A stretch of 64,000 nucleotides of DNA, from positions 124,001 through 188,000 of the IMG/VR virus record IMGVR_UViG_3300030108_004965, one strand, 5' to 3'. The notes beneath the pieces are model-generated. The model had not been told where the DNA came from. It saw only the letters and a program-made list of their open reading frames with translations, and did no database searches. Positions 6,019 through 63,876 of the stretch are shown one piece after another (within the stretch, counting starts at the first letter, position 1; each line of letters opens with the position of its first letter). This DNA comes from a virus. Position numbers and translations under genes: made by a program.

Positions 6019-7374
6019 TTATTTTGCGCTTAATTCACTATACTTTTCTCTCAAGATACTCAAGGCATCTTTTGTTGATGGCATATCCACATCATTATCT
6101 TCTCTGCTCAGAACCTTGATGGTTACGTCTGACCAGTCCACAAAACAAGGGAACACTAGACCATCTGGTCCATTTCTATTTTTAGCAACAAAAATCCTGC
6201 CCTTGTTAGATTGCTTATCCTGCACTGTTCTTGATAAAGAAAAGATAAAATCAGCCACAAAGCACTTATTAAATGCTTCTGAGATGGATTCCATTGTAAT
6301 CACCTCAGCATTGAGTCCACTACGATTTGTCTGAGATGCTGTCCATACAGGTATCTCGTATATTTGAGCCAAAGCACGGAGACCTTCATAGGTTTCTTCC
6401 AGTTCGTGACGCTTTTCTCTTCCATTTCTGTCTGGTCTAAGCAGGTCAGCATAATCACACAGAATCATGTCAGGATATACTCCTCTCTTTTTCAGTTTTT
6501 CAATGTGATTCTTAATTGTTTGAACAGATGCAGATTTTGTTGGGTACTCTTTAATAATCAAGGTACCATCAATCCCTTCAACACAATTCAAGACCTCTTC
6601 TTTCCTCTGCTTAAGATCGGACAAAGGTATGCCGCTAAGATTTGAATCAAATCTACCACCCACTACAGTATCTTTTAATTCTAAAGTGTAGTAAACTACT
6701 GTTTTTCCTTGCTTGACCGCTTGGGCTGCGAGGTGGACAAGAACCATTGACTTTCCAGCACCAGTAGGAGCAATAACAACTCCAAGTTCATTTTTACCTA
6801 ATCCTCCTTTGATAATTTCATCCATTCTATCCCAACCAGTGGAGATAGGATCTCTGTTAATGTACTCAAATCTTTTGAGAGCATCTGTATGGTAATTATG
6901 TCCGAAATTATTGTCTGTCCCTAATTTGAGAGCATCTTGTATAACTTTTTCAATTTCATCAAACGATGAAGATTTGATAAGTTTTATTGATTGCATCATT
7001 GCTCCCTTAAGAACCTGTTTGCGACAAAAATCTAGAGACTTGTCTTTTATGTACTCTGCTTCCTCAACGCCATCTGACTGCATGATCCTTGCAAAGTAAT
7101 TTCTCACCTGTGTAGCAGCCGCATCATCGTAATGATTCAATTCTGTTCTGAGTATTGACATCATAACTTCATGATTTGGGTGCGTATTATATTTAGCTCT
7201 GTATTTGATTAATGTCTCCGCAAAAATTTGCAAATACTTCAATTCAAAAAACTCTATTTTTAATACTTCTGAGATCTGATCGAAGAAGGGACGATCCTCT
7301 AGCATTAATTGACACATGTTTTCTTGGAATTTTTTTCCAAATCTTAAAAATGTTTCCTGTTCGTTATTATTCAT
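6019..7374 (-). CDS. Replicative DNA helicase (DnaB/T4 gp41 family)
   Basis: 451 residues; GGAGG 5 nt before ATG. The N-terminal helical domain (1-160) is followed by a RecA-type ATPase core: Walker A APTGAGKS at 202-209, YYTLELKD after it, Walker B DMILCDYADLL with Asp307, and WTASQTNRSG (345-353, sensor/motif H3-like). It unwinds duplex DNA ahead of the polymerase and recruits the primase. A dedicated promoter lies just upstream, inside the 3' end region of the flap nuclease. Length and motifs fit phage gp41/DnaB helicases. Confidence 0.92.
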   Translation of the reverse strand: MNNNEQETFLRFGKKFQENMCQLMLEDRPFFDQISEVLKIEFFELKYLQIFAETLIKYRAKYNTHPNHEVMMSILRTELNHYDDAAATQVRNYFARIMQSDGVEEAEYIKDKSLDFCRKQVLKGAMMQSIKLIKSSSFDEIEKVIQDALKLGTDNNFGHNYHTDALKRFEYINRDPISTGWDRMDEIIKGGLGKNELGVVIAPTGAGKSMVLVHLAAQAVKQGKTVVYYTLELKDTVVGGRFDSNLSGIPLSDLKQRKEEVLNCVEGIDGTLIIKEYPTKSASVQTIKNHIEKLKKRGVYPDMILCDYADLLRPDRNGREKRHELEETYEGLRALAQIYEIPVWTASQTNRSGLNAEVITMESISEAFNKCFVADFIFSLSRTVQDKQSNKGRIFVAKNRNGPDGLVFPCFVDWSDVTIKVLSREDNDVDMPSTKDALSILREKYSELSAK

Positions 7375-8667: not shown

Positions 8668-9789
8668 TTATTTTTCTTTGTCGACATCAAAGTTCTTACC
8701 TTCGGTATCGAACTTCTTAATTATCTCTTCATCCATAATCTCAAAGACCAGAGATTTAAACTTTTGATCTTTTAGTTTATCTAACCAAGAGGATGATCGG
8801 AACTTATGTTCCTTACCTTTAGCGTCGGTAAGGTAGTACCAGCCGCCCCCTACCCGAAAACGGTCTGATTGAGATAAACGCAAGGCTTCGAGCCACGATT
8901 CTTCATCTTGAATTCGCGCCTCTCCACCCCACAGGATTTTGAACCCACAAGTTCTTCCTTCCGTTCCAAAGCGAGATTTTTCAACCTTAACCTTGACCTC
9001 AGACCCAATCCGGAGACCAGAGTCGTCAGTAACGTATCCTGCTTTAGCCTTTCGCTTTGTTAACCAAATACGTTGGGAGCAGAAATACTCAATCGCTTTA
9101 CCGCCCGGAGCAATAAACGGGGTTGTCATTGCTTCGGCCACATTGCTTGTGATGTTGGTCTTGAGTTGGTTGATCAAGATTAACGTGCACTGCTGATTAG
9201 CAAGTGGGATTGTTAGTTTCGGAAAAGCCTTAGCAAAAATGCGAGGCTTGACTGCCATGGTAGATTGAGGATTGAAGTCAGATTCAATCTCTTTTTCAGA
9301 AGAGGTAGCAGCAATGCTATCCCAAATGAATAGAAACTGAGTCTCGGGATATTCTCCCATCAAATCCTCAATTGTCTCGAGAACCTTTTCCACAGAAAGA
9401 GCCTGAATGTAGAGTAGCGAGTCTACATCGACTCCCGCAGTCGTAAGAAACTGTGGGTCGATAGCACTTTCAGCATCGAAGTAAACCACAGTGTGGCCCA
9501 TCTTCTGTGCATTGGCGGCTATCTGAACTGCCATAAACGATTTTCCGGCTGAGGACAGTCCAGCAATCTCGGTGATTTTCCCAACAGGGATACCACCATA
9601 CCTTCCTCTACACGTTATAGAGTCCAGCCATCTGGATCCTGTAGGGATCCAAGTCTTTACTTCCGTAGGATTATCCTGACGGAGATCGTGCGCAATATCA
9701 ATTCCAACTTGTTTATTAACAAATTTTTTCATTGCACTGATATCAATTTTTCCGGGTTTTGTTTTTTTCATTTTAATTACTTTTCCCAA
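8668..9789 (-). CDS. UvsX/RecA-like strand-exchange recombinase
   Basis: 373 residues from a TTG start at 9789, chosen because AGGAG stands 6 nt upstream; longer in-frame starts run into the upstream gene and lack a well-spaced ribosome site. RecA-fold ATPase: Walker A GLSSAGKS (residues 77-84), YFDAES with Glu107, Walker B FLFIWDS (Asp157), LILINQLKTN, and APGGKAIEYF near the L2 region. It pairs and exchanges DNA strands in recombination-dependent replication, together with the SSB and Mre11-Rad50 protein encoded here. The Lys/Glu-rich C-terminus may bind partners. Confidence 0.92.
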   Translation of the reverse strand: MGKVIKMKKTKPGKIDISAMKKFVNKQVGIDIAHDLRQDNPTEVKTWIPTGSRWLDSITCRGRYGGIPVGKITEIAGLSSAGKSFMAVQIAANAQKMGHTVVYFDAESAIDPQFLTTAGVDVDSLLYIQALSVEKVLETIEDLMGEYPETQFLFIWDSIAATSSEKEIESDFNPQSTMAVKPRIFAKAFPKLTIPLANQQCTLILINQLKTNITSNVAEAMTTPFIAPGGKAIEYFCSQRIWLTKRKAKAGYVTDDSGLRIGSEVKVKVEKSRFGTEGRTCGFKILWGGEARIQDEESWLEALRLSQSDRFRVGGGWYYLTDAKGKEHKFRSSSWLDKLKDQKFKSLVFEIMDEEIIKKFDTEGKNFDVDKEK

Positions 9790-9809
9790 TTTGTTCTCCT
9801 GTAAATAGT

Positions 9810-9833
9810 GAGGCATCTTTAAACCCATGCCTC
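9810..9833 (-). other. Hairpin between the DUF262-like gene and the recombinase
   Basis: GAGGCAT and ATGCCTC form a perfect 7-bp stem with a 10-nt loop, 14 nt after the upstream stop and before CACTATTTACAGGAG. There is no U tract, so it is more likely a processing or stability element than a terminator. Confidence 0.45.
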
Positions 9834-9847
9834 CCTGCGGTGTAAAT

Positions 9848-10996
9848 TTATTTTGCCGCGTTCTGTACGGGGAACTGGATTCCGTATACAGAAGGCTGTG
9901 TAACAATCTCATTCCAAATTGTCGACTGTCGTCTCTTTCTGTAGTCACCATTCCAGTTCAAACGCATTTGTTCAAAATAATAATTAGCCTTAACAGTGGG
10001 ACCAGATTTTTCATCTTGAACTTGTTTGTTGCGTGAGTCCTGTTCTAGTTTTGAGTCTAGTTTTGAAACTTCAGATACAAACTTAGATTCATCAGTGATG
10101 ATCATTTTGTTATTAACAATCGACTCGCAGACCAATGTAAAACACAAGTGTTTTTTACTTGGAACGTTATGGACACTGTTAATTGATGTCATCAAATCTA
10201 AAATTTTTGAAGTTTTTAGACTAGAGAAACCACAATATGCTTCAGACCAGCTTAAATTAACTCCATCTTTATAGAGACGATTAAGGGCACCATCACCAAC
10301 ATCAGCTTTTGGGTCAGTACAGTGTACATAAAGCTTAGAAATGAACTGCTCTGGTTTCATTAAAGATAGAGATCTCTTTCCAAATAGAGACTCAAACAGA
10401 GGCACATGTTTTTTGGCCTCACTCCTAGTCCATTCAGACATCTCAGTTTGTAGAGCATTTCTTTTATGCTGGGCTGTTAAGGATTCGCCCTCATTAAGAC
10501 CCAAGAAGATTCGAGACAAATCTTGCTTCTTAACATCTTCAAACACAGTCATACAGATTTGACTATTAAGAAATTTAGTTTGCACAGATTCGGGCAAATC
10601 TTTAAAAAGTTTGTTTCTTACAGAAACTTGATTGCCATCCAAGTCTATAGTAACACCGGTAAATGCAGAGCCCTCTTCATTATTTAGAAAATCACTAATG
10701 CATTTTGTTCTGTGCTTTCCATCTAGACTTATGTACCTAAATTTTCTACCAATCATTTTGGCAAAGTATTCTTCACTAACTACATCGCCTTCGTTTTCTG
10801 CATAAGTACGGCAACTGTTAACGTCTGCTAAGACAATAGGGGTTGCTGCGAATTCAAAGAAAATATCTTGAATAAAACCATTCTTGTTGTTTTTATTCCA
10901 ACAACCGTGAGGTCTCTCGAACGACTCTTCTGTTGTGATAGTTTTGATTATAGACCGGTTATAATCACGAACGGTCTTCGTTTTTTGATCAAACAT
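9848..10996 (-). CDS. DUF262/ParB-superfamily-like protein
   Basis: 382 residues from ATG 10996, which has AAGGAG 7 nt upstream; longer in-frame starts have none. The core resembles the DUF262 (GmrSD N-terminal/ParB-like) pattern: FIQDIFFEFAATPIVLAD, YISLDGKHRTKCISDFL (the DGxxR motif), LPESVQTKFLNSQICMTVFE, and IFLGLNEGESLTAQHKRNAL. Such domains bind or hydrolyse nucleotides. Placement between the SSB and recombinase suggests a link to DNA processing, but the role is unknown. The C-terminal half has no recognisable HNH nuclease motif. Confidence 0.6.
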   Translation of the reverse strand: MFDQKTKTVRDYNRSIIKTITTEESFERPHGCWNKNNKNGFIQDIFFEFAATPIVLADVNSCRTYAENEGDVVSEEYFAKMIGRKFRYISLDGKHRTKCISDFLNNEEGSAFTGVTIDLDGNQVSVRNKLFKDLPESVQTKFLNSQICMTVFEDVKKQDLSRIFLGLNEGESLTAQHKRNALQTEMSEWTRSEAKKHVPLFESLFGKRSLSLMKPEQFISKLYVHCTDPKADVGDGALNRLYKDGVNLSWSEAYCGFSSLKTSKILDLMTSINSVHNVPSKKHLCFTLVCESIVNNKMIITDESKFVSEVSKLDSKLEQDSRNKQVQDEKSGPTVKANYYFEQMRLNWNGDYRKRRQSTIWNEIVTQPSVYGIQFPVQNAAK

Positions 10997-54909: not shown

Positions 54910-55164
54910 TTATTTAGAAAGAGATAATCTTAAAAATTCAGCAGCCTTGTCAAAACCGGCAAGCTCCAACCTAGAGGCTAAGTCGTCAATTTGAAAAGGC
55001 TCAAGGTCAAGTTCTCGACCAACCAAATCAGGTTGAATGTCCTTGTATGATGTAGTTTTGGTCACCATATCTGACATTTCTTCGGGACTCAAATTTTCAT
55101 ATTCCTCAAGATTTTCGATCTCTTCTTTAATAATTTTTTTTAATTGTTCTTTAGTTATTTGCAT
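54910..55164 (-). CDS. Class I tagged small acidic protein
   Basis: 84 residues; GAGGAATAATAAA before the ATG. N-terminus MQITKEQLKKIIKEEIENLE is the consensus tag (I12-K13-E14). The remainder is acidic and helical with a compact C-terminal domain (QIDDLASRLELAGFDKAAEF). A candidate internal virion protein; function unknown. Confidence 0.7.
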   Translation of the reverse strand: MQITKEQLKKIIKEEIENLEEYENLSPEEMSDMVTKTTSYKDIQPDLVGRELDLEPFQIDDLASRLELAGFDKAAEFLRLSLSK

Positions 55165-55168
55165 TTTA

Positions 55169-55492
55169 TTATTCCTCGTAACTTAATGGGTCGTCATGCT
55201 TACCCCGCATACCTGATCGGTACAAGTCTGCTAATTCTTCTGCTACGACCTGAACCAGTTCCGTTCCGGGCGCCATCTGTGTTAGCAGGAGCGAATACAT
55301 GTCGTCGGTCTCATCATCATCAGGCGAGATTCCTGACATTGTCTCTGCTGTTTTCAACACTTCTTCGATAAACATTTCCAAGTCCTTTGGCATCTCAAGC
55401 GGAGTGTTTGGGTCAAGCATGTCTGCTTCGGCAGTCAGGCTTTGGATCTCTTCTTGAATCATTTTCTTCAAATTTATTCTAGTTATTTTCAT
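55169..55492 (-). CDS. Class I tagged small acidic protein
   Basis: 107 residues; GAGG upstream. N-terminus MKITRINLKKMIQEEIQSLT is a tag variant (I12-Q13-E14). The body is very acidic (GISPDDDETDDMYSLLLTQM) and helical, with a C-terminal LYRSGMRGKHDDPLSYEE. Overlaps the spanin-like gene by 14 nt. Function unknown. Confidence 0.68.
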   Translation of the reverse strand: MKITRINLKKMIQEEIQSLTAEADMLDPNTPLEMPKDLEMFIEEVLKTAETMSGISPDDDETDDMYSLLLTQMAPGTELVQVVAEELADLYRSGMRGKHDDPLSYEE

Positions 55493-55886: not shown

Positions 55887-56290
55887 TACTTCTTTCCTTT
55901 TGTATCCATAACAAGGATACCAAACTCTTCGTTGAGAATACGATCAATCTCTTGTGGGTTCTCTTTGTTCGTTTCAATAAGCCTACGCACTCTTTCTGCT
56001 TTTACTAATTCAATGTGGTCGTTAGACTCCATAGCAGTTTTGTGAGCGATCTCTAGGGCTCGTTGATATTTTAAATTTGCCACCGTCATTTTTTCTATTT
56101 TTTTGTCGGAGGCACCTTCGATAGCGTCGATTTCTTTTTTATAAAGTTCTCGAGCCATCTGCATTTGTGTCTGGAGGGCTTTGACTTTCTTTCCTCCAAG
56201 AAGATAGGCTAAAAGTATAGCGCCCCCAATAACCAGAAATCTCCAGTTATGGAAGCACCATAGTTTTATTTTAGCCCAAGTAATAGTCAT
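55886..56290 (-). CDS. Inner-membrane protein with periplasmic coiled coil (i-spanin-like)
   Basis: 134 residues from ATG 56290 (ATGA overlap with the preceding stop). A single N-terminal membrane segment (WRFLVIGGAILLAYLLGGKK) is followed by a long helix (ALQTQMQMARELYKKEIDAI onwards) that would be periplasmic. This matches i-spanins. It directly precedes the signal-bearing coiled-coil gene. Lysis role is inference. Confidence 0.55.
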   Translation of the reverse strand: MTITWAKIKLWCFHNWRFLVIGGAILLAYLLGGKKVKALQTQMQMARELYKKEIDAIEGASDKKIEKMTVANLKYQRALEIAHKTAMESNDHIELVKAERVRRLIETNKENPQEIDRILNEEFGILVMDTKGKK

Positions 56291-56535
56291 TGCTTGCCCT
56301 GACTCTTTCCCCACTCATAAGCCGCCTGAACGTATTCTGGGTCATACTCGCCCCATTCTGGGTCGTCTTGCATGATTCTCATGTCTTCTATGAAGTCTTC
56401 AATAGAGGAAGCAGTCCGCGCAGCAGTGACAATCTCTCGATCTTCTACTGGGTCAAATCCATAGGCCTGATCTTCCATGACAGCACTAAGTTCTTCTTTG
56501 ATAATTTGTTTTAATTGTTCTTTGGTTATTTGCAT
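56287..56535 (-). CDS. Class I tagged small acidic protein
   Basis: 82 residues. N-terminus MQITKEQLKQIIKEELSAVM, the consensus tag (I12-K13-E14). The rest is acidic and contains DREIVTAARTASSIEDFIED and DDPEWGEYDPEYVQAAYEWG. The GAGGA that serves as its ribosome site lies within the end of the cysteine-rich peptide gene just upstream. Function unknown. Confidence 0.7.
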   Translation of the reverse strand: MQITKEQLKQIIKEELSAVMEDQAYGFDPVEDREIVTAARTASSIEDFIEDMRIMQDDPEWGEYDPEYVQAAYEWGKSQGKQ

Positions 56536-56610: not shown

Positions 56611-56847
56611 TTATCCTCCTAAAATGTCTTTAATCTCTTCTATGTCAGACGGATCTATTTTGAGTTCTAAATATAATTCCTCTCCGTTTTCGAATTTTAT
56701 ATCAATAGCAGCAGTCCCAGCATTTAAATTGATTTGTACTGGTGCAGTAGGTTGTGCCATTGTCGTGCCTACACGCCTTGCCGACCTACTATAATCTGCC
56801 ATCCCTTCTATTATTAAATTCTTTAGTTGTTCTTTTGTGATTTCCAT
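56611..56847 (-). CDS. Class I tagged small protein
   Basis: 78 residues; GGAGG 7 nt upstream. N-terminus MEITKEQLKNLIIEGMADYS, the tag with I12-I13-E14|G15. The rest contains TAPVQINLNAGTAAIDIKFE and ELYLELKIDPSDIEEIKDIL, a small alpha/beta fold with a C-terminal DILGG. Function unknown; candidate internal protein. Confidence 0.68.
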   Translation of the reverse strand: MEITKEQLKNLIIEGMADYSRSARRVGTTMAQPTAPVQINLNAGTAAIDIKFENGEELYLELKIDPSDIEEIKDILGG

Positions 56848-56850
56848 GTC

Positions 56851-57090
56851 TCAGCCTCCGTGTTTCCAAGATTTAGCGAAGTCAATAACAGATTGACCCC
56901 CAATATAGCAAACCGCTATCATGCCCCAGATGTCAGGATCTAGTCCTGCCCAGAGCATAAGAGCGGTCGCTGTCAGAAAAACAAGTAACTTACGACTTGC
57001 AACTTTTTCTTGAACGGAATCTAAGATTCCTTTCTCTTTGTTTTTAAGATACAATTCGTTTTGTATCATTACTTTTTTTTCTTGTTCCAT
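56851..57090 (-). CDS. Two-span membrane protein, holin candidate
   Basis: 79 residues, overlapping the stop of the Mre11-Rad50 gene by 1 nt. The N-terminal charged helix (KNKEKGILDSVQEKVASRK) is followed by two hydrophobic segments (LLVFLTATALMLWAGL; IWGMIAVCYIGGQSVIDFA) and a short basic tail. This size and topology fit small phage holins. Two spanin-like genes follow, but no endolysin gene is visible in the window. Confidence 0.5.
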   Translation of the reverse strand: MEQEKKVMIQNELYLKNKEKGILDSVQEKVASRKLLVFLTATALMLWAGLDPDIWGMIAVCYIGGQSVIDFAKSWKHGG

Positions 57091-60000
57091 TATATTTTTA
57101 CCTTTGCATAACCATCTACTTTCTGAATATCGATTGTCATGTCGACAATGTCTTTCAAAGATTCGAGATGGGAAATAAGAAGAACCGTCTTGAATTGTCC
57201 TTTGATCATTTGCAAGAGTCGAATAAACCCTTCCATATGTTCTTCGTCCAATGCCGTTGCTGGTTCGTCAAGTATAAATAGTTCGCTTTTGGGTAAATTA
57301 GTAACAGAGATTAATGCAAGACGAATAGCCATTGACGCAATGGTCTTCTCCGCACCAGAACCCATGGACAATGGTCTTGGATCATATTTTGGATGCTTAA
57401 TGTAAATCTCAAGCCTATCACCAACATTATCAAAAAACACTTCAAAGTTGACAAGAGAATTCAGAATCGAAGAGATCTCTGCATTGATGATGGGCAACAT
57501 GGATTTAATGACCTGATAGGATACACCATTGGCATGCATCGCTTGCCCAAACAAATCATAGGCAATGTAATCTTTCTCAGCATCGTCTATTTGTTGAATC
57601 CTTTCTCTGGCTTCTTCAATTTGGCGACGTGTAGCACCTTCTTCAGACATAAGGCTAAGAACCTTTTTGTTGCACCTTTCCACTTCTGATTCTTTCTTTG
57701 TGATAGTCGAACGGATAGCTTTCGAGTCTCGCTGCAGGGATTCCAAGTTTTCGTATGCCTCTTGGTTTTCGTAGTAGTGGTTAATTTTTGCATTGACTTC
57801 CTCGATCTCTTTTTCCGCAAGAGCCTTTTTACTCTGGTTTGCCTCAATTTGTGCTTTAATCTTTTGTATTTGTACTTCATTTGTCTTTACCTCTCTGGTT
57901 TTTACATTGTGGTCTTTTAACTCTGCTTCGATGTAAACAATGTTGATGTCATCTTTACTTTTGTTCGTTATCTCTAAATCATATTCAAATCCCTTTAGGG
58001 CTTCTCTAGATTTTTGAATTAGAATTTTTGCCTCTTCGGCTTCTTTAACGAATTGGTTGTTAGAGCAGTACTGACAGTCTGGGTCGTACTCATGGTCGTG
58101 AAGTAGATCAATTTTATTTTGATAATTCGCTATCTCCATCTTGGTTGAACGAATGTGCCTTTCTATAATTGAAATATCTTTCAAAAGACCCTTGTGTTTT
58201 TCAACTTGTTCTTCTCTCGACTCGCGATCAAAATCTTCAATAAAGTCTCGTAAACGCACTTTTAAGGCAAGCAGTTTCTTAAGCCTACTCTCACCATTGA
58301 CTAATGACTCGGAAGCCGTAGAGAGGTCGTTTTGCTTCTTTAAAAGGTTGTTTTTGAGTTCATCTATGTCAAGCCAATCAGTCCCAACAGAATCTAGTTG
58401 ATCCTGTATGGTCTTTTGTTCTTCTTGGAGAACTTTTATCCTAGCATTATGTTTGTCACATAAGTCCGTTTGGTCCGCTACTTCCTCTTTGATTTCGATT
58501 AAGGCTTCCCTAGACCACTGTAGTTTCTTCCTCCAGTCAATAGAATTAAGGTGCTTAATAACACCTTTCATTTCGGCAGAATCTTTTTTGGCAAGTTTAT
58601 GTTTTGCCTCAAACATTTTGAGATCAAGAAATTTTGCAAGAATCTCCTTGCGCTTGGTAGAGCCTTCATTAATAAAACCAAAAGCATCTGTTTGAGATGC
58701 CATTGAGGTTATCAAGAAGTCACTAAATGTTCCGAAAGTTTTCTGTATATTCTTATCGGTCTCTGTTCGGGTTGTTCCATTTTTGCTTTCAAAATGTTCA
58801 CCAAGAGCATAACGGGTAAAATCAAGTTCCGTCTTTGCTTCTTTTGTTTTCTCCCCTTTTACTGTTTTTTCGTATTTTTCAAGATTTCTAGTAATCTCGT
58901 AGGTATCATCGCCGACTCCGATCTGGAGTTGACACTTAGCCTTTTGCTTATTTTGATTGATGATGTGAACATTCTTTCTTTCTCCTTTTGATGTTGCATT
59001 GAATAAACCGAATAGGGCTGCATCGATAATGCTAGACTTACCCGAATAATTTTTACCGAAGATGCCAACAAGGCCATTTAACTTGTCAAAATCGATTTCA
59101 TTCTTTTCGCCGTAGTTAAATAGATTGTTCCATTTCATTTTACGGAGTTTCCAAACAATATTACGAGAAACCTCTTCAGAGCCCTCTATCTGCTTGGAAT
59201 ACTTACGATTTAGTTCCAAAACTCTTTCAAGAACTTCTGGTGAGATTTCCTTATCGGACAGAAATGCTCTTATGTATTTTTCTTGAGTGTTTTGGTCTCG
59301 CATGTTTATACGTTCACCATCAGCCTCAACGGTCTCCTGTTGAGAGTAGCCGGCTTTATTTACAAAATTAACAGAATAAGGATGCCACTTAAGATTTGCA
59401 TAATCACAGGCTCGTCGTAATTTAACAAGAGGTAAATTATAATTTGAAACAAGTCTTAGTCTGGCGTTCTTTGGTACGTCTATTTTTGGTAATGTTCCAT
59501 CTTTATTTATCTCCACGGTATAAAATGGACGCGGAGAAACAAACAGTCTTTTCTCCACAGAAAAATTATCTTTATCACGAATGTTCCAAAGGAGATAACC
59601 TTTCCTCAAAGACTCGCCAAAGTTTTGCTGGACTGTTGATCCTGCGTACCAAACTCTTTTTTCATCATCAAGATATTGTGTTCTGTGAATGTCGCCAAGC
59701 ATAGCAAAGTCAAAATCTTTAAAAATGTCAACTTCATCCTCGCCGTTCTCTAAAGACCATCCGTCTGATACCTTACAACCCATGATAGCACCATGGTAAA
59801 GCGCAATGTTTACCATGGATTTATCAGAGGGAGAGACCCAGTTGTCTCGATCAAACACAGAGAGGACATTTAGGCAGATCGAATCTGTCAACTGGGTCTC
59901 CCCTGAATCTTTTAAAAGATATAGATTAGGATGTTGTAGTGCTTCAATGATAGGCGTAACAGCATCTTGTCGATTTTCATTCTTTAGGTTTCCATCATGA

Positions 60001-60239
60001 TTCCCAAGAATAATGTAAGTCGGAGCGATGTCCGCTAAATTCTTGAGGAACTCTGATGTTAACTCAAAATACTCAGGAGATAAATGAGTTTTAGTGTGAG
60101 CCATGTCTCCTGTGTGGATAATGTAATCCGGCTGATCTTGATGAAGTTGGTCGTAAATTTCCTTAAATACAATCTTGTATTCATCGTGGTATTTTAAGTT
60201 TCGAATGTGTGTATCAGAAATATGTGCAAAAGTAGTCAT
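57090..60239 (-). CDS. Fused Mre11-Rad50 (gp47-gp46 / SbcD-SbcC) recombination nuclease
   Basis: 1049 residues in one frame. Residues 1-350 are a Mre11-type metallophosphoesterase: SDTH (8-11), GDMAH (Asp45), GNHD (79-82), YHG (148-150), GDIH (182-185). Residues about 365-1049 are Rad50-type: Walker A GKNYSGKS (395-402), long coiled coil with zinc hook CQYC (722-725), signature LSMGSGAEKT, and Walker B FILDEPATALD (Asp991/Glu992). In T4 and cells these are two proteins. The complex resects DNA ends for UvsX-driven recombination. A promoter with a palindromic spacer drives it. Confidence 0.95.
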   Translation of the reverse strand: MTTFAHISDTHIRNLKYHDEYKIVFKEIYDQLHQDQPDYIIHTGDMAHTKTHLSPEYFELTSEFLKNLADIAPTYIILGNHDGNLKNENRQDAVTPIIEALQHPNLYLLKDSGETQLTDSICLNVLSVFDRDNWVSPSDKSMVNIALYHGAIMGCKVSDGWSLENGEDEVDIFKDFDFAMLGDIHRTQYLDDEKRVWYAGSTVQQNFGESLRKGYLLWNIRDKDNFSVEKRLFVSPRPFYTVEINKDGTLPKIDVPKNARLRLVSNYNLPLVKLRRACDYANLKWHPYSVNFVNKAGYSQQETVEADGERINMRDQNTQEKYIRAFLSDKEISPEVLERVLELNRKYSKQIEGSEEVSRNIVWKLRKMKWNNLFNYGEKNEIDFDKLNGLVGIFGKNYSGKSSIIDAALFGLFNATSKGERKNVHIINQNKQKAKCQLQIGVGDDTYEITRNLEKYEKTVKGEKTKEAKTELDFTRYALGEHFESKNGTTRTETDKNIQKTFGTFSDFLITSMASQTDAFGFINEGSTKRKEILAKFLDLKMFEAKHKLAKKDSAEMKGVIKHLNSIDWRKKLQWSREALIEIKEEVADQTDLCDKHNARIKVLQEEQKTIQDQLDSVGTDWLDIDELKNNLLKKQNDLSTASESLVNGESRLKKLLALKVRLRDFIEDFDRESREEQVEKHKGLLKDISIIERHIRSTKMEIANYQNKIDLLHDHEYDPDCQYCSNNQFVKEAEEAKILIQKSREALKGFEYDLEITNKSKDDINIVYIEAELKDHNVKTREVKTNEVQIQKIKAQIEANQSKKALAEKEIEEVNAKINHYYENQEAYENLESLQRDSKAIRSTITKKESEVERCNKKVLSLMSEEGATRRQIEEARERIQQIDDAEKDYIAYDLFGQAMHANGVSYQVIKSMLPIINAEISSILNSLVNFEVFFDNVGDRLEIYIKHPKYDPRPLSMGSGAEKTIASMAIRLALISVTNLPKSELFILDEPATALDEEHMEGFIRLLQMIKGQFKTVLLISHLESLKDIVDMTIDIQKVDGYAKVKI

Positions 60240-60249
60240 GTGTCCTCCA

Positions 60250-60462
60250 TTACTTTCTTACTATAATATAACCCATATCGTATGGGTTGTCAAGTGAAAA
60301 GTTCAACTGATAAAACTTTAAAATGTCTGTTACGATCTTTTTCATCATCAGTGAATTACCAGTTATAATTTTCATTTCGTGTCCCCAATTGTCATTAATA
60401 AAAAGGTGACAAGTGTCATTAACTTCATAGTGCTTTAGGCCATGTAGATCAAGAATTTTCAT
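60250..60462 (-). CDS. Small MutS-related (Smr)-like domain protein
   Basis: 70 residues; GGAG 6 nt upstream. The opening ILDLHGLKHYEVNDTCHLFI matches the Smr core (LDLHG), followed by HEMKIITGNSLMMKKIVTDI and LDNPYDMGYIIV, the Smr closing strand. Smr domains are nicking nucleases or RNA-binding modules. This copy is a free-standing minimal Smr. Its last 40 nt double as the promoter of the fused Mre11-Rad50 gene. Confidence 0.75.
   Translation of the reverse strand: MKILDLHGLKHYEVNDTCHLFINDNWGHEMKIITGNSLMMKKIVTDILKFYQLNFSLDNPYDMGYIIVRK
60265..60293 (-). promoter_or_regulatory. Promoter with palindromic spacer, for the fused Mre11-Rad50 gene
   Basis: Minus strand TTGACA (60288-60293), TATATT (60265-60270), with a 17-bp spacer that is the perfect inverted repeat ACCCATA-CGA-TATGGGT. 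The repeat is a candidate operator; it lies inside the last codons of the Smr-like gene. Confidence 0.8.
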
Positions 60463-61309
60463 ACTTAACTCCCTGTAGTACCATCGGTGTTCTTGCTTTG
60501 GCTAAATGTAGAATTTTTAAGTAAGATTTTATTATTTGTTCATATTCTTCTTTAGAAGAATATAATTCTACAAAATGATGAAGTCTTAAAAAATTATGAA
60601 AATCATCCCTGTTTAGTTTACCAAACAGATTGTTAAAAAGCTCTACTGCCTGCTCTGGAGTTTTCGCGACGAATTTATTTGTTTTCTTATCTTTGATACC
60701 ATGTAAGTGAGAAAAGGTATAACCTTTATTGGACAGCATCGCTACCATCAACTGAGTTCGATGTAATCCTTTTAAACTACCTGATTCTCCTGAATGGTAA
60801 GCAAACTTTAACCATGGTAAGTCACCAACCATCCAGTCAATCTGAACATAAGTCTCTCTTTGTCGATAGTAATCATATTGAGGAAACATTGTAAAAATGT
60901 TACCATTTGTAGTTTTGTCATCTGCTACGTGAATCATGCCCTCGCTTGCGATGGGGTGTGCCAATAACTTTAAGAACGCCTTCAACTTGCACATATCATC
61001 AGTGCTAGTTCTGGCTCTGGATTTTATTTTTTTATAAAGCGTTTGCCATTCGCTTGCTATGATTCTATATTCTCCTAGTTCTCTAGTGTTGTAAGGCTCA
61101 TCATCAAACAAGTGCTTGAAGTCCAGAGCCAAATCCAAATCTCCGGAAATTTCTTTTTTACCCACGCTACCCACGGGATAAAAGTTCTTAAATACATGAG
61201 CCTTTTTTGGAAAAATGAATCCAAGATGCTCAATGTACTTACTCATTGTTGGTCTAACGTTTTCGCGAACTATTGGCTTCGCGTAGCCTTTAAAAATGTT
61301 TCCACCCAT
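60449..61309 (-). CDS. DNA polymerase beta-superfamily nucleotidyltransferase
   Basis: 286 residues; AGGAGG 5 nt upstream. The motif VGSVGKKEISGDLDLAL (residues 46-61) gives the GS-x...-D-x-D arrangement of the Pol beta nucleotidyltransferase fold with Asp57 and Asp59; the third acidic residue is probably in YVQIDWMVG. Family members transfer nucleotides to RNA, protein or small molecules. The helical C-terminal part (LFNNLFGKLNRDDFHNFLRL) is not recognised. Substrate unknown. Confidence 0.75.
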   Translation of the reverse strand: MGGNIFKGYAKPIVRENVRPTMSKYIEHLGFIFPKKAHVFKNFYPVGSVGKKEISGDLDLALDFKHLFDDEPYNTRELGEYRIIASEWQTLYKKIKSRARTSTDDMCKLKAFLKLLAHPIASEGMIHVADDKTTNGNIFTMFPQYDYYRQRETYVQIDWMVGDLPWLKFAYHSGESGSLKGLHRTQLMVAMLSNKGYTFSHLHGIKDKKTNKFVAKTPEQAVELFNNLFGKLNRDDFHNFLRLHHFVELYSSKEEYEQIIKSYLKILHLAKARTPMVLQGVKYENS

Positions 61310-61318
61310 TGGTGCCTC

Positions 61319-62254
61319 CTATATGTTTCTTAGTTGTTTTTCAAGGAAATAAAGATCTCCATCTATTTCCTCTGCTTGTGTTAATCTTTCTTGAAATACG
61401 CCCTGAGACATTGACCCAATGTCTTCGTAGTTTCCTATGTTCAGTTTTCTTATTTCCAAATCATACTTCATTAACGAACGAATAATCCAGTGTGCTTTCT
61501 TCTCTGCGTCGGGATCCAAGGCAATGTATACTGGTGTATCATGGATTGCTATCGCTTGGAATAACTTTGAGTCTTCTCTCAAAGTTGAGCCAAGAATTGG
61601 AATAGCATTTTCACCTGCCACAATAGCATCAAATACGCCTTCAACAAGGATTACTGGTTCATCCCAATCAATATTGAGTTCGTTGAAGATGATGTCTCGA
61701 CCACAGGGTGGATTAAGATACCTACGATGATGCCCCACAAATGAACGAGCAATAAAATAATTAGAATTTCCTTCGTCGTTAAAAGACGGGATGATGATTC
61801 TTCCTGCATATTTCCCCTTTGGGCAATAGCCCATTTTCCATTTTAAAATTTCTTTTCTTGCTATGCCTCGGCCTCTTAGATAGTCTAAGGCGGCTTTGGA
61901 TTTGAGTGGCAATCTTTTATTACACAACGACACAAACTCTTCAGGAAGATCAATAACTTGCCTCTCCTCAACGCTGTTGATAGCATCAAATAATTTGTCA
62001 AACTCTGACAAATCAAGTCGACCTTGTAATTCAAGATACTTTTGTCTTTGCTGATAGTTTCCAAACTTTCTTACAAGTCGGTAAATGTTCTTGCCTCGAG
62101 CATCGCAAATCCAACACTTATAAGAGTTGATCGAAAAGTTGACTGACATCTTTTTCTTGTGATGTTTGCAAAACGGGCAGTGATATAAGTGTTCATCGCC
62201 AGCACGGCGATAGGAACCGAGTATGTCGGTTATTATCTGTCGTTTATTATTCAT
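61319..62254 (-). CDS. DNA primase (DnaG/gp61-like)
   Basis: 311 residues from ATG 62254, with GAGG 5 nt upstream; the frame to 62299 would overlap the promoter. N-terminal zinc site Cys26-x2-Cys29 (CPFC) and Cys47-x2-Cys50 (CWIC). TOPRIM core PVILVEGVFDAI with Glu205 and Asp209, then YIALDPDAEKKAH with Asp247/Asp249. It makes RNA primers and works with the helicase encoded at 6019-7374. Small compared with DnaG (no helicase-binding domain seen). Confidence 0.93.
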   Translation of the reverse strand: MNNKRQIITDILGSYRRAGDEHLYHCPFCKHHKKKMSVNFSINSYKCWICDARGKNIYRLVRKFGNYQQRQKYLELQGRLDLSEFDKLFDAINSVEERQVIDLPEEFVSLCNKRLPLKSKAALDYLRGRGIARKEILKWKMGYCPKGKYAGRIIIPSFNDEGNSNYFIARSFVGHHRRYLNPPCGRDIIFNELNIDWDEPVILVEGVFDAIVAGENAIPILGSTLREDSKLFQAIAIHDTPVYIALDPDAEKKAHWIIRSLMKYDLEIRKLNIGNYEDIGSMSQGVFQERLTQAEEIDGDLYFLEKQLRNI

Positions 62255-62271
62255 GTTGTCCTCTCTTTTAT

Positions 62272-62299
62272 AATGTAACACGTTGAGAGGATTTGTCAA
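62272..62299 (-). promoter_or_regulatory. Sigma-70-type promoter for the primase
   Basis: Minus strand TTGACA (62294-62299), 16-bp spacer ending ACGTGT, TACATT (62272-62277). The only related promoter here with a 16-bp spacer. Confidence 0.72.
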
Positions 62300-62313: not shown

Positions 62314-62751
62314 TTAATCTAAATCATTCATCGCATCTTGATAAGCACGTTCATCACCAGTTGGACTAATCAATCTTTTTACAACATAATATTCTGGGTC
62401 GCCTTGTGTGTCGCCGGGATCCAGAATCCAGTAGTCACCAAAGTGATTTGGGGTCAAATCTCGCATCGGTTCAGGGGACCACGAATAGTAATCTAAAGTA
62501 GAATGCTTCCCAAACGTTCCGGGCTTTTTAAATTTAATGTATGGAATAGGACTACTATGTCTCTTTTCCCAGTTATCCCACTTATCAGACATTGGAATTC
62601 GAGCGAACGCTCTCATTGCTCTAGCGCGGCGCTGTTGTAGTAAACGCTCTTTCTCTTCACGCTCGCCCTCTGCATCAAGTTCAGGTCTAAAATCACTTTC
62701 GTTAATTGTTTCTAAGATTAATTCTTTTAATTTTGCTTCTGTTAGTTTCAT
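62314..62751 (-). CDS. Class I tagged protein of unknown function
   Basis: 145 residues; GAGG before the ATG. N-terminus MKLTEAKLKELILETINESD: tag variant with I12-L13-E14|T15 and I16-N17-E18|S19. The next 30 residues are charged helix (GEREEKERLLQQRRARAMRA), then a Trp/Tyr/Pro-rich globular part (DNWEKRHSSPIPYIKFKKPG, DYWILDPGDTQGDPEYYVVK). It sits in the replication arm, unlike most tagged genes. Function unknown. Confidence 0.65.
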   Translation of the reverse strand: MKLTEAKLKELILETINESDFRPELDAEGEREEKERLLQQRRARAMRAFARIPMSDKWDNWEKRHSSPIPYIKFKKPGTFGKHSTLDYYSWSPEPMRDLTPNHFGDYWILDPGDTQGDPEYYVVKRLISPTGDERAYQDAMNDLD

Positions 62752-63341: not shown

Positions 63342-63370
63342 AATGTAACGTGTTAAGTAGTATTTGTCAA
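63342..63370 (-). promoter_or_regulatory. Sigma-70-type promoter for the NadR-like gene
   Basis: Minus strand TTGACA (63365-63370), 17-bp spacer ending ACGT, TACATT (63342-63347). The -35 overlaps the stop of the RuvC-like gene. Confidence 0.78.
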
Positions 63371-63876
63371 GTAGAAAAGTGAGACAAAGCAACGACAATT
63401 GAATCAGCCATGTCGTCAGTCCCGGGCTTAGGGTTTCCGTGGCGGGTTAATTCAACAATAAATTCTTTTGGGTATTTTTGCTCAACCCATTCAATAATTT
63501 TTTTCTTTGTATTTTCGCCTCGTTTAATTTTAATTCCGGATTTTGATCTGGCTGTTCTTGACGGAACAAGGATTGGGATTTTATTAAAACAATGATAAGC
63601 CATTAAACAAATCATTCCATTAAATCTTTGCAATTTGGCCATAGTTCCAGCAGTAGTTTTTCCTCCACTGAACATTGTAAATGGCTCCTCAACTCTTACT
63701 TCAGAGATTTTATATTTTCTTTGGATTACCTTAAGTTCATTACAAAAAAATGCCCAAGCCTTTTCTTCTAGAGTTTCCTCTTTTAGTTTTTTAAAGTTGA
63801 CTTCTAAAAGTTTTTGTTTATCATCAAGCACACAGTAGCCTATTTTGGAGGTACTCACATCTATCCCAAGTATCAC
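63367..63876 (-). CDS. RuvC-like Holliday junction resolvase / RNase H-fold nuclease
   Basis: 169 residues, GTG start with GAGAGG 8 nt upstream. It shows the RuvC pattern: Asp6 in ILGIDVSTSKIGYCVLD, VRVEEPF with Glu, and the C-terminal GTDDMADSIVVAL with two Asp residues for the metal site. FSGGKTTAGTMAKLQRFNG fits the conserved helix. It would cut branched DNA formed by recombination before packaging; T4 uses an unrelated enzyme (gp49). Confidence 0.85.
   Translation of the reverse strand: MILGIDVSTSKIGYCVLDDKQKLLEVNFKKLKEETLEEKAWAFFCNELKVIQRKYKISEVRVEEPFTMFSGGKTTAGTMAKLQRFNGMICLMAYHCFNKIPILVPSRTARSKSGIKIKRGENTKKKIIEWVEQKYPKEFIVELTRHGNPKPGTDDMADSIVVALSHFST

What the first reader, a model, noticed from the sequence alone, without database searches (positions are those of the whole stretch)
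57090..60239. Single-chain Mre11-Rad50 fusion
One 1049-residue frame carries a complete Mre11-type phosphoesterase (all five metal motifs) followed by a complete Rad50 ATPase with zinc hook and Walker B. T4 gp47/gp46, bacterial SbcD/SbcC and cellular Mre11/Rad50 are separate proteins. The fusion fixes 1:1 stoichiometry and would place the nuclease at the root of the coiled coil.
Basis: partly seen in the sequence, partly recalled or inferred. Interest (0 to 1): 0.75.

Follow-up and report, generated by a model that had tools for sequence, protein, structure and literature searches.

The report
Fused Mre11-Rad50 protein of marine phages
This marine phage makes the two halves of a standard DNA-end repair machine as one protein chain, a fusion already described in 2011 and found here in well over a hundred related viruses; the less expected part is that the tip joining two copies of the machine comes in two forms that seem to be swapped between phages.

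Summary
One 1049-residue frame (57090-60239, minus strand) holds an Mre11/SbcD nuclease, a capping domain, a helix-loop-helix, a linker of about 7 residues and a complete Rad50/SbcC ATPase with coiled coil and CxxC zinc hook. It is not an assembly artefact: all 258 fetched relatives that span the junction are fused and none is split. It is also not new. Yoshida, Claverie and Ogata (2011, PMC3175470) described such fusions in Mimivirus R555, a Bacillus phage, plasmids and eukaryotes. They also noted abundant marine homologues beside phage primases, as here. Annotated phages (Mel-JY01, PAU, PTm1, pT24, MA9V-1) carry single-CDS versions. One detail needs correcting: motif V is GDIH, with Asp replacing the first His. 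The likely role is end resection and tethering for UvsX-type recombination-dependent replication (inferred). A further result came from the relatives. The coiled-coil apex has two main forms, DPxCxxC (window; 66 of 166 distinct proteins) and a non-canonical PC[G/S]-x5-6-C (92). On a tree of the head domains the form changes at least 13 times. Proteins with about 97% identical heads can carry different apexes. Recombination of an apex cassette is the best reading; why it happens is unknown.

The parts
57090..60239 (-). Single-chain Mre11-Rad50 fusion gene, 1049 aa
   Evidence: ORF; domains; single continuous frame in the 191,696-base record; fused in all relatives spanning the junction
59565..60239 (-). 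Mre11/SbcD phosphodiesterase domain (aa 1-225)
   Evidence: Pfam Metallophos aa 3-153; model aa 1-295 aligned with SbcD/Mre11 structures, Z 24-25.5
60207..60215 (-). Metal motif I, D9/H11
60096..60107 (-). Metal motif II, D45/H48 (GDMAH)
59997..60002 (-). Metal motif III, N80/H81 (GNHD)
59793..59795 (-). Metal motif IV, H149
59685..59693 (-). Metal motif V, D183-I-H185 (GDIH; Asp in place of the first His)
   Evidence: D183 in 164 of 164 covered sequences; same substitution reported for Mimivirus R555
59355..59564 (-). Mre11 capping domain (aa 226-295)
   Evidence: secondary structure of the model; alignment with SbcD nuclease-plus-capping structures to aa 295
59178..59294 (-). Helix-loop-helix, the expected Rad50-binding element of Mre11 (helices aa 316-327 and 334-354)
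   Evidence: role by analogy with T. maritima Mre11
59157..59177 (-). Inter-domain linker (aa 355-361)
   Evidence: ends of helix 334-354 and of strand 362-371 in the model
59151..59165 (-). Conserved junction motif R359-N360-x-x-W363
   Evidence: R 165/166, N 165/166, W 166/166
58536..59156 (-). Rad50 N-terminal ATPase lobe (aa 362-568)
59034..59066 (-). Walker A, GIFGKNYSGKS (aa 392-402)
   Evidence: K401 166/166
58098..58535 (-). Coiled-coil outgoing arm (aa 569-714)
   Evidence: helices in the model
58056..58097 (-). Apex loop with CxxC zinc hook (C722, C725), apex type A
   Evidence: the region around it (about aa 700-790, 57870-58142) is the segment replaced between relatives
57537..58055 (-). 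Coiled-coil returning arm (aa 729-901)
57093..57524 (-). Rad50 C-terminal ATPase lobe (aa 906-1049) with signature SGAE 961-964, Walker B D991/E992, D-loop D998 and H1024
61319..62299 (-). DnaG-type primase, conserved upstream neighbour
   Evidence: PHROG_47 E 9e-37, TIGR01391; present in 111 of 114 relative loci with enough upstream flank
63367..63876 (-). RuvC-like Holliday junction resolvase
   Evidence: PHROG_159; present in 89 of 114 relative loci with enough upstream flank
8668..9951 (-). UvsX-like recombinase of the same phage
   Evidence: PHROG_97 E 1e-65
6019..7374 (-). DnaB-like replicative helicase
   Evidence: PHROG_19 E 2e-79
56851..57090 (-). 79-aa gene overlapping the last base of the fusion's stop codon, a conserved downstream neighbour of unknown function
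   Evidence: found in 131 relative loci

Best explanation
The gene encodes a phage Mre11-Rad50 (SbcDC-type) nuclease-ATPase as one chain. Two chains would form the usual two-nuclease, two-ATPase assembly, dimerised at the nuclease, at the ATP-bound heads and at the zinc hook. It would resect and tether phage DNA ends, giving 3' single strands to the phage's UvsX-like recombinase for recombination-dependent replication and repair, as T4 gp47/gp46 do. Shown here: the domains and their order, the catalytic and ATPase residues (with Asp replacing one His of motif V), fusion in every relative, absence of another copy of either half in this record, and the company of primase, helicase, UvsX and RuvC genes. 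Inferred: the enzyme activities, dimer formation and role in replication. From the 7-residue linker I infer that the helix-loop-helix can just reach its own chain's coil root: about 8 peptide steps or 28 A fully extended, equal to the distance quoted for T. maritima.
For: Domains and folds. Residues. Only copy in the record: one PHROG_77 match and one PF00149 match, both in this frame. Context. Closest predicted viral structures are single-chain giant-virus and phage DNA-repair exonucleases over nearly the whole length (Tupanvirus E 2e-67, Harvfovirus, Yasminevirus, Tenacibaculum phage pT24). T4 parallel and linker geometry: Yoshida et al. 2011.
Against: No biochemistry exists for this family as far as I found. 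The Asp-for-His change in motif V could alter or weaken metal binding; it is conserved in the family and also occurs in a split T5-like homologue, so loss of activity is unlikely but untested. The record is classed linear and may be incomplete, so a second Mre11 or Rad50 gene outside it cannot be excluded. The dimer was not modelled.
Confidence: 0.88

Rival explanations
1. Assembly or sequencing artefact: two adjacent genes (SbcD then SbcC) joined by a lost stop codon or frameshift.
For: In many phages the two genes are adjacent and in this order, so a single error could join them.
Against: 258 of 258 relatives spanning the junction are fused, at roughly 27-95% identity; the junction motif RNxxW is all but invariant; annotated phages have single CDSs of 1066-1326 aa. 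In SPO1-like phages the space between the genes holds several stops in all frames.
Confidence: 0.01
2. The fused protein acts in counter-defence or host DNA degradation rather than in phage replication.
For: Phage nucleases sometimes degrade host DNA (general knowledge). The apex is swapped between two forms, the kind of pattern that conflict can drive.
Against: Conserved neighbours are replication and recombination genes (primase in 111 of 114 loci, RuvC in 89 of 114), and UvsX and DnaB lie in the same genome. No flanking gene tracked the apex type (9-12 independent pairs).
Confidence: 0.08
3. The two apex forms arose repeatedly by point mutation and small deletion, not by recombination.
For: The flanking KF[VI]xDA helix start can be aligned between forms, and coiled coils evolve fast in all pairs.
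Against: Each form differs at several positions plus a 3-residue indel. Apart from a rare GCKC form (2) and four other CxxC apexes, one of them type-A-like (L215), no intermediate was seen among 166 distinct proteins. In L064/L072 the DNA is mostly 85-97% identical up to a sharp edge and then 42-48% over about 120 bases. Same-form pairs with heads at least 95% identical keep 74-100% apex identity against 37-49% for different-form pairs.
Confidence: 0.2

Closest known systems
Mimivirus R555 and the Mre11/Rad50 fusion proteins of Yoshida, Claverie and Ogata 2011 (PMC3175470)
   Same: Same order in one chain (Mre11 domain, capping and HLH, linker, Rad50 with coiled coil); GDxxH in motif II and Asp for His206 in motif V; marine homologues beside phage primases. 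Giant-virus members are the best predicted-structure matches.
   Different: R555 is 1351 aa with a longer coil and lies in a eukaryotic virus; this protein is 1049 aa and lies in a tailed phage genome of at least 192 kb. R555 itself was not aligned here.
Single-CDS fusions of annotated phages: Microcystis phage Mel-JY01, Sphingomonas phage PAU gp288, Tenacibaculum phages PTm1/PTm5/pT24, Chryseobacterium phage MA9V-1
   Same: One CDS spanning both halves; Mel-JY01 also shares the primase neighbour, the RNxxW junction and the DPxCxxC hook.
   Different: 32% identity to Mel-JY01 and less to the others; PAU, PTm1, MA9V-1 and pT24 lack the full RNxxW junction and are about 1300 aa.
Bacteriophage T4 gp47/gp46
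   Same: Same two activities expected, in phages with a UvsX-type recombinase.
   Different: T4 makes two separate proteins. T4 sequences were not aligned here; the role is from the literature.
SPO1-like and T5-like phage SbcD/SbcC pairs (Bacillus BSP10, Enterococcus TJE1, Vibrio PG07)
   Same: Same two domains; neighbouring primase in the SPO1-like phages.
   Different: Two separate genes, with stops between them in the SPO1-like phages; canonical His in motif V of the SPO1-like ones.

Membership tests
Mre11/Rad50 single-chain fusion (R555-like) | Mre11-type phosphoesterase and Rad50-type ATPase in one open frame, Mre11 first | tested here: met
Mre11/Rad50 single-chain fusion (R555-like) | Fusion conserved in relatives, not a local error | tested here: met
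   258 of 258 spanning loci fused
Mre11/Rad50 single-chain fusion (R555-like) | HLH and a short linker between the halves | tested here: met
   helices 316-327 and 334-354, linker 355-361
Mre11/Rad50 single-chain fusion (R555-like) | Common ancestry with Mimivirus R555 on a sequence tree | not tested
   R555 sequence not at hand; only fold similarity to giant-virus relatives
Mre11/SbcD nuclease | Two-metal ligands of motifs I-V | tested here: met
   All present except that the H206 equivalent is Asp
Mre11/SbcD nuclease | NCBIfam TIGR00619 sbcd score cut-off | tested here: not met
   37.6 bits against a cut-off of 77.65; a distant relative, not the cellular SbcD subfamily
Rad50/SbcC ATPase | Walker A, Q-loop, signature, Walker B, D-loop and switch His in split lobes joined by a coiled coil | tested here: met
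Rad50/SbcC ATPase | CxxC zinc hook | tested here: met
   C722/C725 in the window protein; only 70 of 166 distinct family members have CxxC
Rad50/SbcC ATPase | NCBIfam TIGR00618 sbcc score cut-off | tested here: not met
   44.5 bits against a cut-off of 478.5; a distant relative, not the cellular SbcC subfamily
Rad50/SbcC ATPase | DNA-stimulated ATPase, Zn-mediated dimer | not testable with these tools
   needs purified protein

The most novel reading that the evidence does not exclude
In this phage family the apex of the Rad50 coiled coil is an exchangeable cassette. At least two apex forms circulate: canonical DPxCxxC and a non-canonical PC[G/S]-x5-6-C with its two cysteines spaced by 6-7 residues. 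Recombination replaces one with the other while the heads and most of the arms stay, so closely related phages may make machines whose hooks cannot pair with each other.
Probability: 0.6. Interest if true: 0.6.

Novelty: new member of a known kind. Interest (0 to 1): 0.4.

Why it matters
The fusion supports the 2011 suggestion that the abundant marine homologues of Mimivirus R555 belong to phages, and gives complete gene neighbourhoods for them. The apex result could matter more. The CxxC hook is described as highly conserved (PMC9569753), and engineered swaps show that the hook is a modular dimerisation unit (PMC6969161). A natural family that keeps its heads while exchanging two hook types would give a ready set of matched proteins for asking what the hook does, whether a C-x6/7-C hook binds zinc, and whether hook type controls which molecules pair.

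Tried and rejected
1) Artefact at the junction: rejected. 2) SPO1-like phages as a recently split version: one tblastn alignment runs across both genes in one frame, but the space between them has several stops and the match there is not real. 3) Asp in motif V as a mark of fused proteins: rejected, since a split T5-like homologue also has it and fused PAU gp288 has His. 4) A neighbour gene that follows apex type: none after correction for relatedness (9-12 independent pairs; low power). 5) A donor for the L064 apex: a degenerate DNA pattern hit only the L064 contig. 6) The PCx6C apex in annotated phages: only chance matches. 7) A cellular origin from genome contigs: seven hits, of which five are relatives on MAG contigs (likely viral) and two are only short weak matches to the phosphoesterase part; the WOR-3 hit is a phage fragment between runs of N. 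8) Insertion in the megaphage gene L002 as a known RNA family: no credible Rfam match.

Full report
The observation. The frame at 57090-60239 on the minus strand is real and complete: 1049 residues with an ATG start. Pfam and PHROGs find a calcineurin-like phosphoesterase at the N-terminus and an SbcC-like ATPase over 316-1048. A model from 66 aligned relatives (mean pLDDT 83.3) shows a phosphodiesterase, a capping domain to about residue 295, two helices at 316-327 and 334-354, a linker of about seven residues, and a Rad50 with two long coil arms around an apex loop at 715-728. Structure comparison splits the chain where expected: residues 1-295 align with SbcD/Mre11 structures (Z 24-25.5) and residues 363-1049 with SbcC/Rad50 from its own residue 1 (Z up to 29.6).

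The Asp is present in all 164 family members that cover the position. Yoshida et al. noted the same replacement in Mimivirus R555. It is not a mark of fusion: split T5-like D12 also has Asp, and fused PAU gp288 has His.

Not an artefact. The window lies in a virus record of 191,696 bases. Four protein-based scans of IMG/VR and one of genome contigs, with three annotated or metagenomic phage loci, gave the 266 loci analysed. 258 cover the junction and all are one frame across it; none is split. These come to 166 distinct proteins including the window's. The three alignment-based scans stopped at about 600 candidates each, of which 561-586 encoded relatives, so the family is larger than the sample. 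The junction motif RNxxW is all but invariant (R and N in 165 of 166, W in 166 of 166). Annotated phages carry the fusion as one CDS: Mel-JY01, PAU gp288, PTm1, MA9V-1 and pT24. SPO1-like and T5-like phages keep two genes, as does T4 (literature).

What it is. The fusion is a known kind. Yoshida, Claverie and Ogata (2011, PMC3175470) described R555 and twelve others, argued that many of the marine homologues belong to phages rather than giant viruses, and noted phage primases on the same scaffolds. This window fits: a DnaG-type primase lies a few genes upstream (61319-62299), and the primase is present in 111 of 114 relatives with enough upstream flank, RuvC in 89 of 114. The best viral structure matches are single-chain DNA repair exonucleases of giant viruses and Tenacibaculum phages.

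How it most likely works. The record has no other match to either half, while the window also encodes a UvsX-like recombinase, a DnaB-like helicase and a RuvC-like resolvase. The best explanation is end resection and tethering for recombination-dependent replication, as for T4 gp47/gp46. Activities and role are inferred. Fusion does not create a new place for the nuclease: separate Mre11 already binds the coil root through its helix-loop-helix, and the distance of about 28 A quoted for T. maritima is about the reach of the linker here when fully extended (8 steps of 3.5 A, my estimate). The tool output for the model does not show whether docking is within or between chains.

A second result: the apex. 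The window protein has a CxxC hook (HEYDPDCQYC). Among 166 distinct family members, 66 have this DPxCxxC apex, 92 have PC[G/S]-x5-6-C with the two cysteines 6-7 residues apart, two have GCKC, four have other CxxC apexes and two are not covered. On a tree from head columns only (719 columns, apex excluded), apex form needs 19 changes over all forms and 14 between the two main ones; supported branches alone force 13 to 15. Holding the DPxCxxC proteins as one clade is rejected (p-AU 0.000135, 60 proteins).

Local replacement. L064 and L072 have heads 97.3% identical and different apexes. Their DNA is mostly 85-97% identical up to a sharp edge before the apex, then 42-48% over about 120 bases, recovering gradually. 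L089 and L201 (heads 97.6%) show a softer version. As a control for generally fast coil evolution, same-form pairs with heads at least 95% identical keep 74-100% identity over residues 700-760, against 37-49% for different-form pairs, whose arms stay at 71-96%. The two forms look ancient in the family: Mel-JY01 at 32% identity has the DPxCxxC form, and L126 at 33% identity has the other. In the split phages and in the more distant fused phages examined, the hook is CxxC, so the long-spaced form is probably the derived one.

Limits of the apex result. The contigs are metagenomic, so single pairs could be chimeras, though the number of independent changes argues against that as a general cause. 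No donor was found, no neighbour gene follows the form, and repeated point change plus deletion is not fully excluded. Whether the PC-x6/7-C form binds zinc or dimerises is unknown; a model of one such protein (mean pLDDT 75.2) puts its cysteines in the same apex loop. I found no report of such a form in the papers searched, which cover open-access papers only.

Verdict. The fusion is confirmed but already described; this is a new member of a known kind in an uncultivated marine phage lineage. The interest lies more in the exchanged apex, which is a family-level observation rather than a property of the window alone.

Noticed in passing
57870-58142 (apex region) and loci L064, L072, L089, L201, L179: The coiled-coil apex occurs in at least two forms across the family and appears to be exchanged by recombination (see report).
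   Followed up: yes
L002:3663-4569: The Mre11-Rad50 gene of a 484-kb metagenomic phage (LR756508) has an insertion of about 0.9 kb with stop codons right after metal motif V; it may be an intron. Rfam gave no credible match.
   Followed up: partly
L125 (CP070664.1, WOR-3 MAG): A phage stretch (RuvC, primase, truncated Mre11-Rad50) sits between runs of N in a bacterial chromosome record, probably a scaffolding error in the MAG.
   Followed up: partly
54910-55164, 56287-56535, 56611-56847 (minus strand): Three small ORFs share an almost identical start, M[QE]ITKEQLK[KQN][IL]I, followed by unrelated sequence; similar starts (MKITRINLKKMIQEEI, MKLTEAKLKELILETI) occur at 55169-55492 and 62314-62751. 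A shared N-terminal tag of unknown role.
   Followed up: no
60449-61309: 286-aa ORF with a GSVGKKEISGDLDLAL stretch that resembles a nucleotidyltransferase active site; no Pfam, PHROG or NCBIfam match. Found only in relatives with the window's apex type (11 of 114 loci), which fits shared ancestry.
   Followed up: partly
L093, L111: Two related proteins have a third apex form, GCKCLHEAEK, with neither CxxC nor the long-spaced pair.
   Followed up: no
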